64,000 nucleotides of DNA, taken from positions 1,364,001 through 1,428,000 of the forward strand of contig NC_088318.1 of the NCBI RefSeq assembly GCF_910592395.1. The letters run 5' to 3'. This document shows positions 43,676 through 63,044 of the stretch, in pieces. The position numbers and the translations under genes are program-made. The notes under the pieces are model-generated. The model did no database searches. It was not told the origin of the DNA and saw only the letters and a program-made list of their open reading frames with translations. Source of the DNA: Lineus longissimus (lineage: Eukaryota > Nemertea > Pilidiophora > Heteronemertea > Lineidae). How positions within the stretch are numbered: position 1 is the first letter of the stretch; each line of letters begins with the position of its first letter.

Positions 43676-43807
43676 ATGGCTGACAACACGAAACGTGGGA
43701 GCATTGCCGGTGGCCACCACCACAAACGGGCTACAGCTGCTGATGAAGGAAAGACCAAGTCCAGGTTGACCACGTTGGCTCCTGGTGAAAATATCAAAGA
43801 AAAACAG
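43676..43807 (+). CDS. Dynein heavy chain alternative first exon 1
   Basis: It has 44 codons, MADNTKRGSIAGGHHHKR to APGENIKEKQ, ending phase 0 at gtacat. It is basic, with a His run. It joins in frame to the shared exon at 61818 ([11 protein letters not shown]). It is the outermost exon of the array and has a YY1-type motif upstream, so it may be the main promoter. Confidence 0.7.
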
Positions 43808-44999
43808 GTACATAGTCTTAGAATATGTTGTCATCTGCTGTAACTTTTATTGATGATATTCTATTGTTCTATTGGCATGTTTCTTTTAATGGAATGCTCT
43901 AGACCTACTTCTAAAGAGGATGTCCTAACCAGTTTCAACTAACATTAATTACAACAATTCTTTCCATACCATTAGCCTAAGGTGGATTGTCTTCAATCAG
44001 CACCAAAGATATAAGAGCAGGAAGACCACTATTTTCTGTTCTCAATGATTCATCAAGAGGTATGATGTTTTCCCAATGATATGGCAATGGGAAGCAATAA
44101 GTAAGTAACGGTTCCCAGTCATTGACAGCCTCGGATCCATACCAAACCTTGGTTTGACAGGCAACAATCACAGCCTGCCTGACGAATTTTAACTGTAAAA
44201 GCTATTACATTTTCCAATGTCATCATGGATGGTGTCTGATAATTTGTAAGCTTAAGGCACCACAAGGTTTGGCTTGCATTGGTATGCTAGAGTAACTTGT
44301 TTATACTTCATTTCTTGGTCTCAAAATTGTTGACAATTCCTTGGTTGATACTTTCACCAAACAGGCACTATACTCAGAACTGTGGCTCTGTGACAGTGTT
44401 TGCCCATGCTAATCAGTGTTTGTGGTCTGGCCACCTAAGCAAGGCCTGTGGATTGTTTGCCTTAGTTTGTTTGGAATAATGTATGTGTTCTGAATATTTT
44501 TCGGTTTGGGGCCTGATGAGCAATTCTAGGCCAATTTGAATTTGGTTCAAAAGTGAAGGATATCTCATAAAGGGGTTTAGTGTAGTAGGCCAAAATGTTA
44601 TCAATTATAGAAATATTGGAATGACATTTCTCTTGAACCTGTTCTCAATAGCTATGATTCCTTTCATTTTCATATTCATGGTTCATCACCATTGACATGT
44701 TATGGCTCTTTGATGATCTCTAGTCAGCAGAAGACTTTGAGTGAAGTTGTCCTTGCTTTTGAGCCACTTGTCAAAGCTATCAGGCCTATTCACCTCCGAG
44801 CCTATTCTAACCATTAATCCTGTCTAGTGTGTGACACAAACAAGAAACCCCTCTACTGTGGACATGGTAGTTTCTCCTGTGAACTTGAGGTGGTAATCTT
44901 ATACATCCAAATCTGCAGATCCAAGTGAGCCACTTTAGCATAGAAAATTAGCAAAATTAGCATTTGATTTGCTGCCCTGGCAACTGGCTGATGGGGGTG

Positions 45000-45027
45000 G
45001 GGGGGGGGGTGGTGGTGGCAGGCCTGA
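45000..45027. repeat. G-rich simple repeat
   Basis: G run followed by GGT repeats, in the intron after first exon 1. Confidence 0.85.
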
Positions 45028-46016
45028 CTGGTTATAACTACCTCAGTAAAGTTAATATCTTCTTGCTTCCTGTGGGTTGGCCTGGTGAAAGGGTGCTACC
45101 ATCAAATCAAACCACACCATCTGAGTCAAAGACCCCTCCGTGTAGATTTTCATCACTTCTTTCTTTCTCGTTCCTTTAGCGAGTGTCGTTTCATTATATT
45201 GTATAGAAAGTGTTGAATAAACATGAATGATTGTGTGTTCTGTTAAATCAGTATTTGTTAAATATATAATTCATTTCCCTGGCTGAAATAAATATCTTAG
45301 CAATGTGTGTCCTGAAATGGGATATTGAATTTCGATGGAGTTACATTTGTTTAGGGTGCGTTTGTATTGACGTCCTTGGAGAGAACAAAACATTCAATAC
45401 TACTCTCTGCGACGTCGACTTGACAATACTTCAAAGGACGTGACGGCATAAATGTCATAAGTTGTCCTACAATACCAGAAAAACATGAACTTGGTCATCC
45501 TTTCTCCAAAGGAAATATCATGAGATGTGCAGATAAGGGACTTCATGTTCTCAAATAGCTCTGTTAGCAGTCGAGAAGTGTTTCGAATATGTTGTGAATA
45601 ACGTTTGAAGAATATAAGACCCACTGTCCACCCTGCATACCACTTACTTCCATTTTGTTTTAAGGTATTTGACTATTGTAGAGTTTATATTTCCATATGT
45701 TTTCCTGCTATAAAGTGTATACACAGCCAGGCTAATCCAATGACACAGACAAATAAAAGGGATAAAAGTATGTGCTTCAATTGTTTCCTTTGCAAATCAA
45801 ATGGCCAGCTTAAGATCATTCATTAAAGCCGCCTTTTACCATAGCTAAATAATGAAAAGCATCAAGGCTATAAAGTCTGCATAGCTTTATGATCCAGGCA
45901 TGGTATTGTAGTCTAAGTGAGCTGACCAATATGTTGTGGACTGAAATTTCTTCCATTCATTACAAGAACATGGAGTCACTGGAAAAATACCATCTCATCC
46001 CAAAATCTCTGCCTAA

Positions 46017-60022: not shown

Positions 60023-61506
60023 GTATGTACAACTCTGTCATCAAATAGTCCTCCTTTAAGACAAATTATCTTCTCTTGGCTCTATTCGATTGACCTGTCT
60101 TGTCTATGATAATCTAGCCTTCTGTGTGCTTCGGCTGGATCTCGTTAGCCCGTGGTACACTGATGTGTGATAATTGGCCCCTGAAAATGGGAAACATGCA
60201 GTGGGAAGACTTTGGTAGAAATCACGATTGGGCATTGTTGTCTTTATGACATCCTGTTCTGTATTTGGGGGAGACACTTTCCCTGAAAGGAGAGCTGTAC
60301 GTGAGCTGTCTGCTCAGTTAATCCCCCCTGTCCCCAGAAGTATCAGACCACAGCCGTTCTCCTTCAGTGCGAAGCTGGATTCCCCACTCATATCAAACCC
60401 TTTCATCTATTGATTTCAGCACATATTCATATCAATCTAAAGTCAATGATTAACTTTAAAATAGCATCATGTTGTCATGGTATCCATTAATATGAAAGAG
60501 AGGCTGTAACCTTGACCCTTCATGCTCCGGGCCACTTGATTCTGAATGAGATGCTGCCTGGGATATCAGTTACTGATAACAAGTTCGATGGGAATATAAA
60601 TATTGTTATTGAAAAGGCTATAGATCAGTATGAAATCCCATATTGTGAAACGAATGGCTAGTTAGTCGGACGGTGCATTTCTATTTGTCATGTTATTCAG
60701 TTATTGCATGGATCAAGTATTCTTTTAGAACTTTTTTTTGGTCATGTGTGGTCTTGTCGATTCATTGCGCCAGGGAATTTAAAACTTGATATCATTGAAA
60801 TTGTGAGAACTTTTCACACCTTTCGAACATTTATACTCCACCTGCAGCATGTCTGCTGGCAAGTGCGTTTAACGTCAACATTACCTAAGAAAACACGAGT
60901 CGGTCAATATACTCGTATTGATGTTCATGTTACCAGCACTGGTTTGTTGAAGTAACAAATTGATCACTCGATCGGTAACCACTCAGAACGAGTACTATTG
61001 GGGATTAACGAATTTGCTTGAAATTGATATGGTTGCGATTATAGCTCCATTGAAGTTCAGTGCGTTCTCAAACGCCCGTCTTAACCTCAAAAAGGTTGTA
61101 CAGGACCAACCCCTGACAGACAAGTGTTGGTTGACAATTATTGGCAACACAAGTCAGTGATCCATTGCATTCAAAGAACTAGCTCAGTCCCCTTAGGAGT
61201 TCAGTATACTCTCAAACTTGTGTATCAATCTCCCAAGTTGGGTATGAGGACCAATTCTATTCAGGGACGCTTGTGACCGCAATCATGACATAACGTTATA
61301 TATCGTGTGGCATTGTGTTTGCAAGGTGTGAAATGCAAGGGGCTGCAGTTCGCCTGAGGGACGTTTCTCACAGAAGTGTTCATGTGAGCATCCTTGATAG
61401 GACTTGCTGTGTAAATTTGGGAGTATTTGATCAGTTACCTTTGGAGACACTATGGATTACTAACTAATTATTACTGCCAGGCTTTGCATGATACTTTAAA
61501 AGTTTA

Positions 61507-61569
61507 ATGGAAGGTCCAATGAAGATGTCAGCGGCGTTGATTTCAAAGGCTGATCTAAATTTGTTTCAA
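61507..61569 (+). CDS. Dynein heavy chain alternative first exon 8
   Basis: It has 21 codons, MEGPMKMSAALISKADLNLF then Q, ending phase 0 at gtaagg. It is the nearest to the shared exon (249 bases upstream). Confidence 0.65.
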
Positions 61570-61817
61570 GTAAGGAACTCTGTGTTGTTGCCATAATCTA
61601 TTTCTAAAGCTTTCAGCCATCTTCTAGCACCAACAACTCAGAGAGAGGGTGTGGTGGATGACATCCCAATGGGAATAATAGTCTTGCCATCCCTGTGTGC
61701 CTTCTGATCTAGACTTCTCATAGTTTGCTATACGCCCCAAGGACTCTGGTTTTCCTAACCCTCAACATTAACACAACAACTGAATACTGAACCACTTTTC
61801 AAACTTTCTCTCTCCAG

Positions 61818-63044
61818 CAAAAGCTAAAGGAAGAGCGTGAGGCGAAAAGGGCGCATCTTGACGCGCGCCATGATTACATCCTACAAACGGTCGCGGACAA
61901 GATCGGTGTGGACAAGTCTGAGGTTGAGGATGCGATCCTCGAGGGGACGCAGATTGAGACGATGGATCGATTCCTCGTCGCCAACGGCAGCAGCCAGATC
62001 TTGTTCTTTTATCAAGAACCTGAACAGGAGCGTGAACACGGTAAGTGCGGAGATTTAGGGTTCAGATTTGGTTTTTTTGGGGGGGGGGGGGTATCTCGGC
62101 CTTAAATGGCCTAATTTGTAGTCTTATGTGATGATCAGCGTAAACTTAATCAGCAAAGTTTTCTAACATTGCTTTCTCTACTCCATTTGACAAGTCTATC
62201 CCGTGTAGTCCTATGTACCAAATTTTAACACACTGTCACGCAAACCTTGAATTTTGACCCAACATTACACTTTTCCATCTCATCCCAGTGTAGACACATA
62301 CATTTCTGTCACCTTTTCACGCTAACCGGCCCAACATTTAGGACATTCATAACCTTATTTGTGACAGATAAAAGGCCTTGTCATCAGATCAATAGGTCTT
62401 ATTATACTTCACATGCATATTGTACTCTCTATTCCATACCCAGTTGGCCGAACAAGCTGTAGTTTGAATCTAGTTTCATGTATAAGTGGTAATCATGAAA
62501 TGCAGTAGACTTAGCTTGAAATTTGTATGAATGCTTTCAATCCAAGTTACTGTACATATATTGGACATGTTCCTATACAGAATGTACAGTTGAAATCAGC
62601 CAACTTATTGTGATTTAGACTTCTTCCTTTTACTTTCCATAGCTTGGACAGGTTAATCCCCAAATAGTGAATCATTACCATTTAGCTTGATGTGTTTACA
62701 TGGTCGCTACTGACAACCAAGTGTCACTTAATTAAAGCACAAAGACCAAGTGATAAATTTACTATTGAAAATAATGAATGTCAGTTCCATGAGTGTTGTA
62801 ATCAATCAAGTTGGATCGTTTTTACCCGGCGAATAAGTTTTTATTAAAAAAATGTGTAAAAAGACATTACTCCTGAAAGTGATATGTTGGGAGAGAGATA
62901 TATTTGCGGGTCCTTTGTTTGAACGAATATTACTTTTGAACAAGTACTGTTCCCATTTGCATAGCCAATTCTATTTTCCAGTGACGGTGGACTTTAAACT
63001 CACACCGCGGACCCAGGCCGACGTTGCCCGTCGTACATCAACAA
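61818..63044 (+). CDS. Outer-arm dynein heavy chain, DNAH5/DNAH8 type: shared N-terminal exons (rest outside window)
   Basis: Two shared exons are seen: 61818-62040 (acceptor ctctctccag, donor gtaagt) and 62982-63044 (phase 1 in and out). The first reads [20 protein letters not shown], then [40 protein letters not shown] and YQEPEQE. Human DNAH5 has EKEAKRALLDARHNYLF and [20 protein letters not shown] followed by MFYYQ at the same place, so the match is strong. The second exon reads VTVDFKLTPRTQADVARR and looks linker-like. DNAH5/8 chains are axonemal outer-arm motors that drive ciliary or sperm beating. This part is the extreme N terminus of the tail, used in arm assembly and docking. The motor domain lies to the right of the window. 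By eye I cannot tell DNAH5 from DNAH8, which in many invertebrates is a single gene. Confidence 0.9.

What the first reader, a model, noticed from the sequence alone, without database searches (positions are those of the whole stretch)
43676..62040. Array of at least eight alternative first exons feeding one outer-arm dynein heavy chain
Seen: eight exons (43676, 48678, 49932, 51341, 54186, 57212, 59963, 61507), each an ATG plus 16-53 codons, each ending in exact phase 0 at a GT donor with no acceptor in front. All stand upstream of a phase-0 shared exon that encodes the conserved DNAH5/8 N terminus. Eight phase matches by chance are unlikely. Known: this dynein region takes part in outer-arm assembly and docking. 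Inference: alternative promoters give the motor different N-terminal tails, perhaps for different cell types or cilia. This resembles variable-constant gene architecture and I know of no description of it for an axonemal dynein.
Basis: partly seen in the sequence, partly recalled or inferred. Interest (0 to 1): 0.92.

Follow-up and report, generated by a model that had tools for sequence, protein, structure and literature searches.

The report
Dynein gene with many alternative starts
A ribbon-worm gene for a ciliary motor protein appears to have about six interchangeable first exons, each giving the same motor a different short tip, one of them shared with molluscs and other distant animals; this may let different kinds of cilia carry differently tipped motors.

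Summary
The window encodes the start of a DNAH5-like outer-arm dynein heavy chain of the ribbon worm Lineus longissimus. Other evidence supports six of the eight. A public model, isoform X2, splices E3 straight to 61818. E1-type tails occur at this junction in 18 of 27 invertebrate orthologues. E6 matches Tubulanus and an oyster. E3 and E4 are tandem-duplicated coding exons. A codon-plus-donor scan ranks E1-E6 as the top six plus-strand pieces. E7 is borderline; E8 is unsupported. Six fish species and one clam also have two tails on one constant region, and human DNAH5 is reported to have one alternative first exon (PMC11344339), so the phenomenon is partly known. New here are the size of the array and the age of some exons. 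Separate promoters and cilium-specific use remain untested.

The parts
43676..43807 (+). E1, alternative first exon, class A tail (...KTKSRLTTLAPGENIKEKQ), 44 codons, phase 0
   Evidence: Anchored score 102 to Glandiceps P0129, 0 of 106 decoys as high; tblastn E 2.8e-10; 18 of 27 invertebrate tails are class A; top codon+donor score 19.4
48678..48770 (+). E2, alternative first exon, 31 codons, phase 0; RWKGLAVK motif like bivalve KWK tails
   Evidence: Codon+donor 16.7, rank 2; [KR]WK..A.K occurs once in six frames of the whole window, here (pattern chosen after seeing E2); local score 33, reached by 6 of 106 decoys, anchored score reached by 12 of 106
49932..50090 (+). E3, alternative first exon, 53 codons, phase 0; first exon of public isoform X2
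   Evidence: P0002 residues 1-53 exact, residue 54 continues at 61818
51341..51457 (+). E4, alternative first exon, 39 codons, phase 0; tandem paralogue of E3
   Evidence: E3/E4 local score 82, shuffles at most 45; last 21 codons pS 0.87, pN 0.22, Fisher p 3e-5 on rounded counts; codon+donor 13.3
54186..54251 (+). E5, probable alternative first exon, 22 codons, phase 0
   Evidence: Codon score per codon reached by 0 of 72 decoys; codon+donor 13.4; no clear homologue (local 79 of 106, anchored 8 of 106 decoys as high)
57212..57259 (+). E6, alternative first exon, 16 codons, phase 0; RRGS class
   Evidence: Best tail match P0005 Tubulanus MTSQRRGSLLI, 0 of 106 decoys as high by local and by anchored scoring; also Ostrea P0009; tblastn only E 0.015, inside the noise
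59963..60022 (+). E7, possible alternative first exon, 20 codons, phase 0
   Evidence: Codon+donor 9.9 where shuffles give 0.4-0.5 pieces; per codon 3 of 72 decoys as high; A at -3; no homologue, net charge 0
61507..61569 (+). E8, unsupported candidate, 21 codons, phase 0
   Evidence: Codon score reached by 26 of 72 decoys, combined rank 11 of plus-strand starts, T at -3, net charge 0, no clear homologue; good donor only
61818..62040 (+). Constant exon, N-terminal part of DNAH5 ([11 protein letters not shown]...), phase 0 to phase 1
   Evidence: PDB 8j07 DNAH5 E 1.9e-16; P0002 residues 54-127 exact
62981..63043 (+). Next exon (VTVDFKLTPRTQADVARRTST), codon-aligned span of the exact match
   Evidence: P0002 residues 128-148 exact

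Best explanation
The region is the 5' end of a DNAH5-type outer-arm dynein heavy-chain gene of Lineus longissimus. About 18 kb of DNA upstream of a constant exon holds an array of at least six alternative first coding exons (E1-E6, possibly E7). Each carries its own ATG and a phase-0 donor and is spliced directly to 61818, so each transcript gives the same motor with one of several short, basic N-terminal tails of 16-53 residues. Shown: E3 joins 61818 in a public gene model; E1 and E6 types occur at the same junction in other animals; E3 and E4 are tandem duplicates kept coding; E1-E6 have coding composition. Inferred: E1, E2, E4, E5 and E6 also splice to 61818, and each exon is driven by its own transcription start. 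Inferred more weakly: the tail sits just before the dimerization domain, near the docking complex and the doublet surface, and tunes docking, assembly or turnover in particular kinds of cilia or sperm.
For: E3 to 61818 exact in P0002. Class A tails in 18 of 27 invertebrate orthologues that reach the junction (molluscs, bryozoan, hemichordate, amphioxus). E6 type in Tubulanus and Ostrea. E3/E4 paralogy with pS 0.87 against pN 0.22. The six plus-strand pieces at 12.9 or more in 41.1-61.81 kb are exactly E1-E6; 300 shuffles average 0.03-0.08 and never exceed 1. A at -3 before 7 of 8 ATGs against 107 of 385 background plus-strand ATGs. E1-E6 net charge +3 to +9; 27 of 27 invertebrate and 123 of 128 vertebrate tails are positive. 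Six fish and Mya arenaria have two tail classes on one constant sequence. In Chlamydomonas the gamma heavy-chain dimerization domain lies near the docking complex at the doublet surface (PMC7817835, passages).
Against: No transcript data were available. The count of phase-0 pieces is not above chance. E5 rests on composition, start context and charge alone; E3, E4, E5, E7 and E8 have no clear match among other species' tails. In a plain tblastn scan only E1 stands out: minus-strand chance matches (best E 0.004) beat E6 (E 0.015), and at E up to 1 there are 275 matches outside the eight exons. Real sequence is a harsher control than shuffles: four other stretches (22.2 kb, both strands) hold 5 pieces at 12.9 or more, some perhaps real exons, and the minus strand of the array holds one start at 14.5. 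Minus-strand ATGs have A at -3 in 38% of 421. The charges of E1 and E3 are reached by 16 and 9 of 79 decoys. No CpG signal marks separate promoters. E1 and E5 have acceptor-like sites upstream.
Confidence: 0.78

Rival explanations
1. Only three or four first exons (E1, E3, E6, perhaps E4) are used; the rest are chance open frames that end at donors, as expected in 18 kb.
For: Phase-0 pieces are as frequent as chance; E5, E7 and E8 have no clear homologues; E2's similarity to bivalve tails is reached by 6 of 106 decoys; other stretches of the window also hold a few high-scoring pieces.
Against: E2 and E5 score 16.7 and 13.4 in a scan where shuffles give fewer than 0.1 pieces at 12.9; both have A at -3 and basic tails.
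Confidence: 0.2
2. One upstream promoter with untranslated leader exons; E1-E6 are mutually exclusive second exons chosen by splicing, not by separate promoters. (This rival concerns how the exons are chosen and can hold together with the array itself.)
For: Acceptor-like sites lie 94 bases before E1 and 65 before E5; no CpG signal at separate starts.
Against: 5 of 8 exons have no acceptor above score 2 within 200 bases; acceptors are not enriched over background ATGs.
Confidence: 0.15
3. Annotation noise: the conserved class A exon is the only functional start, and other tails in public models are gene-prediction filler.
For: Several odd vertebrate tails look like filler (25 of 133 fit neither main class).
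Against: Two classes recur in six fish with an identical 73-residue run after the junction, and in Mya; E3/E4 show strong synonymous excess; RRGS tails recur in two phyla.
Confidence: 0.05

Closest known systems
[quoted passage not shown] PMC11344339 passage, citing Hornef 2006, which is not held)
   Same: Orthologous N-terminal region; an alternative first exon
   Different: One alternative in human; at least six candidates here. I did not determine which tail classes the human exons belong to.
Ray-finned fish and Mya arenaria DNAH5 models with two first exons
   Same: Two tail classes joined to one constant sequence at the same junction
   Different: Two classes in each of the seven species compared; no tail of E3/E4 type scored clearly above decoys in any species
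Plectin and the UGT1 and protocadherin clusters (recalled, from no call)
   Same: Several alternative first exons spliced to one constant part, giving alternative N termini
   Different: Different proteins; UGT1 and protocadherin variable exons encode whole domains, here they encode 16-53 residue tails
Sperm paralogue swap DNAH8/DNAH17 for DNAH5/DNAH9 in mammals (PMC11779644 passage)
   Same: Gives different cilia different outer-arm heavy chains
   Different: Separate genes, not alternative exons of one gene

Membership tests
DNAH5-type outer-arm dynein heavy chain | Conserved N-terminal sequence of DNAH5 | tested here: met
   PDB 8j07 DNAH5 E 1.9e-16; P0002 identical over the window's exons and named DNAH5-like
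DNAH5-type outer-arm dynein heavy chain | Motor domains in the same gene | not testable with these tools
   Downstream exons lie outside the window; P0002 is 4687 residues and lists Pfam accessions that I recall as dynein motor families
Alternative-first-exon (variable-constant) gene | Several ATG exons with compatible phase before one shared exon | tested here: met
   six of eight supported
Alternative-first-exon (variable-constant) gene | Transcripts that join different first exons to the shared exon | tested here: inconclusive
   One public model for E3; the other members of its 11-sequence cluster could not be read
Alternative-first-exon (variable-constant) gene | Separate transcription starts | tested here: inconclusive
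   Acceptors absent before 5 of 8; CpG test negative
Tandem-duplicated exon array | Paralogous neighbouring exons | tested here: met
   E3/E4 only. Of 28 exon pairs, five others pass the 95th percentile of shuffles but none of these passes the shuffle maximum

The most novel reading that the evidence does not exclude
An ancient bilaterian variable-constant system: the DNAH5 gene of the bilaterian ancestor already had more than one alternative first exon (class A, perhaps also RRGS and KWK types), lineages have since expanded the set, and the tails act as cilium-type-specific addresses for the outer arm, so that one gene does in worms and molluscs part of what paralogue swaps do in mammals.
Probability: 0.35. 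Interest if true: 0.8.

Novelty: new variant of a known kind. Interest (0 to 1): 0.6.

Why it matters
Animals build very different motile cilia, and how the outer arm is adapted to each is open. If one heavy-chain gene carries a conserved, expandable set of N-terminal tails next to the dimerization and docking region, tail exchange becomes a simple testable way of making cilium-specific outer arms. It also means that DNAH5 annotation and clinical panels should cover every first exon.

Tried and rejected
Rejected: the phase-count argument. Rejected: CpG as promoter evidence (mean upstream observed/expected, permutation p = 0.22 for eight exons and 0.18 for the first six). Led nowhere: the sigma-70 promoter scan, which does not apply to animal DNA and was at the shuffle level (51 found, 46.7 +/- 8.1 expected); Rfam, no match; a search with the E3 tail plus 25 constant residues for E3-type tails elsewhere, where 10 of 16 candidates passed E 10 and, apart from P0002, the best had E 0.01, 7 of 9 alignments covering only about the constant third of the query and two covering 40% and 54%. 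Considered: E8 as the counterpart of the mollusc MATTAAAGKINRELQM type; the anchored score was 11 against P0125 and 17 against a fish tail, 8 of 106 decoys as high, so not claimed.
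Full report
What the locus is. The shared exon 61818-62040 translates to [33 protein letters not shown]... and its first residue aligns with residue 20 of human DNAH5 in PDB 8j07 (E 1.9e-16). A search with this exon returned, at 100% identity, 'dynein axonemal heavy chain 5-like isoform X2 [Lineus longissimus]' (P0002, a cluster of 11 member sequences on one contig). 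P0002 residues 1-53 equal E3 (49932-50090), residues 54-127 equal the shared exon, and residues 128-148 equal the next exon at 62981-63043. So the window is from the bootlace worm or something extremely close (genome paper PMC8593623: abstract and passages seen), and one of the predicted junctions, E3 to 61818, exists in a public model that skips E4-E8. The evidence behind that model (RNA or prediction) was not visible to me.

The counting argument. Eight in-frame ATG-to-donor pieces sound unlikely, but 18 kb of sequence holds many. With a donor-matrix cut-off of 6 and at least 16 codons, the plus strand has 7, the minus strand 3, and Markov shuffles of the region give 5.6 +/- 2.2. Phase agreement alone therefore says nothing. 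Other tests were needed.

Conservation of the tails. I looked at the N termini of 163 orthologue representatives (P0002-P0164; one search listed 120 of 163 hits, one search listed 10, one search listed 120 of 801, with overlap). 161 reach the junction; Acropora P0128 and Lottia P0130 do not. Five vertebrate ones have fewer than 12 residues before it, one of them none; the others carry tails of varied sequence before QKLKEE-like sequence. Of 27 invertebrate tails, 18 are class A (KSRLAALAPGENIKEKQ type: molluscs, bryozoan, hemichordate, amphioxus), 2 RRGS, 2 KWK and 5 a remaining group 'D', of which the chiton P0015 fits only loosely. Of 133 vertebrate tails, a loose pattern puts 81 with class A and 27 with an LWK type; 25 fit neither. 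E1 of Lineus is plainly class A: anchored score 102 to the hemichordate Glandiceps, 0 of 106 decoy pieces as high. E6 is RRGS class: Tubulanus MTSQRRGSLLI and Ostrea RRGSILIP, 0 of 106 decoys as high. A plain tblastn scan is less kind: only E1 stands out (E 2.8e-10), E6 has E 0.015, and minus-strand chance matches reach E 0.004. E2 shares [KR]WK..A.K with Crassostrea and Ruditapes tails; the motif occurs once in six frames of the whole window, but I wrote the pattern after seeing E2, a stricter bivalve pattern has no hit, and the plain alignment score is reached by 6 of 106 decoys. E3, E4, E5, E7 and E8 have no clear match in other species.

Same-gene pairs elsewhere. Over the first 1500 constant residues identity is about 99% or more of aligned positions in all seven. 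That the 73-residue run reflects the same exon as the 74-codon constant exon of Lineus is inference.

Paralogy. E3 and E4 align with score 82 where 300 shuffles reach at most 45. Over their last 21 codons the synonymous difference is 0.87 and the non-synonymous 0.22; Fisher p is 3e-5 on counts rounded to whole sites. The first 60 intron bases and the 60 bases upstream show only 27% and 35% ungapped identity. This is an old tandem exon duplication with selection on the peptide. Five other exon pairs of 28 pass the 95th percentile of shuffles, none of these the maximum.

Coding composition. I trained codon log-odds on 1324 codons of other presumed genes in the window. Per codon, the number of 72 decoys scoring as high was E1 0, E2 2, E3 1, E4 2, E5 0, E6 0, E7 3, E8 26. 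A scan of ATG-to-donor pieces of 12-70 codons in 41.1-61.81 kb, scored by codons plus donor, puts exactly E1-E6 at the top of the plus strand (19.4, 16.7, 15.4, then E5 13.4, E4 13.3 and E6 13.0), then E7 at 9.9; E8 has 5.6. Shuffles of order 1-3 average 0.03-0.08 pieces at 12.9 or more, maximum 1 in 300, and 0.4-0.5 at 9.8 or more. Against this: the minus strand has one start at 14.5 (46188), and four other stretches that I took as mostly non-coding (22.2 kb, both strands) hold 5 pieces at 12.9 or more; some may be unannotated exons, but real sequence is a harsher control than shuffles.

Start context and charge. A at -3 precedes 7 of 8 ATGs (not E8); the plus-strand background is 107 of 385 (p about 0.0008 for 7 of 8), while minus-strand ATGs have A in 38% of 421, and decoys in 7 of 41 (plus) and 11 of 35 (minus). 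E1-E6 have net charge +3 to +9, E7 and E8 have 0; 27 of 27 invertebrate and 123 of 128 vertebrate tails are positive (5 vertebrate tails shorter than 12 residues dropped). Per residue, the charges of E1 and E3 are not unusual (16 and 9 of 79 decoys as high); E2, E4, E5 and E6 are reached by 1, 1, 6 and 3.

Verdict per exon. Strong: E1, E3, E6. Good: E2, E4. Probable: E5. Borderline: E7. Unsupported: E8.

How it probably works. 5 of 8 first exons have no acceptor above score 2 in front, so separate transcription starts are the simplest reading, but upstream CpG gives no support. In Chlamydomonas the beta and gamma heavy chains dimerize by N-terminal domains that lie near the docking complex at the doublet surface (PMC7817835, passages), and in Tetrahymena the N-terminal tail regions are bridged to the docking complex by density (PMC8500839, passages); that DNAH5 is the gamma-type chain is recalled. 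A basic tail just before that domain could contact the docking complex or tubulin, or affect assembly or turnover. This step is inference.

What is known. [quoted passage not shown] Searches for DNAH5 with alternative first exon (that paper only), dynein heavy chain with alternative first exon and axonemal (2 papers), DNAH5 with alternative promoter (one paper, by its title on cancer data), dynein with alternative first exon (21 papers, 20 listed, seen as a listing), DNAH5 with 79 exons (4 papers, only PMC11344339 opened), DNAH8 isoform and promoter terms (4 papers, listing) and dynein alternative N-termini (758 papers with at least two terms, none of the 10 listed holding the N-termini phrase) gave no account of a multi-exon array. 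A paper on N-terminal processing of ciliary dyneins (PMC10605206) does not use the words isoform, alternative or splice in its main text. Only the open part of PubMed Central was searched.

Noticed in passing
50125-50853: Eleven-copy 66-base tandem repeat starting 35 bases downstream of the E3 exon end; six copies carry a strong acceptor-like site (scores 7.6-9.5, above the real acceptor at 61818), so the E3-E4 interval holds six possible decoy acceptors.
   Followed up: partly
47458-47500, 54395-54461, 59515-59656: Dispersed repeat related to CTCTCTATTAAGGACAC, in both orientations within the array; perhaps a mobile-element family.
   Followed up: no
62981-63043: The second constant-side exon is small, and in the six fish the models with different tails also diverge from residue 74 after the junction, so this position may be alternatively spliced too.
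   Followed up: no
P0097, P0131, P0040: A further ray-finned fish tail type (ISNSQITALK-like) before the same constant sequence, a possible third first exon in fish DNAH5.
   Followed up: no
46188-45991, minus strand: A minus-strand open piece scores 14.5 in the codon-plus-donor scan; it lies across a two-copy 55-base repeat at 46068-46196 and is otherwise unexplained.
   Followed up: no
1671-2123 plus; 17505-17750 plus; 32876-34627 minus; 40145-41041 minus: Neighbouring genes by Pfam: COG7-like, class-III aminotransferase, CCDC34-like (just below the curated cut-off), Fringe-like glycosyltransferase.
   Followed up: partly
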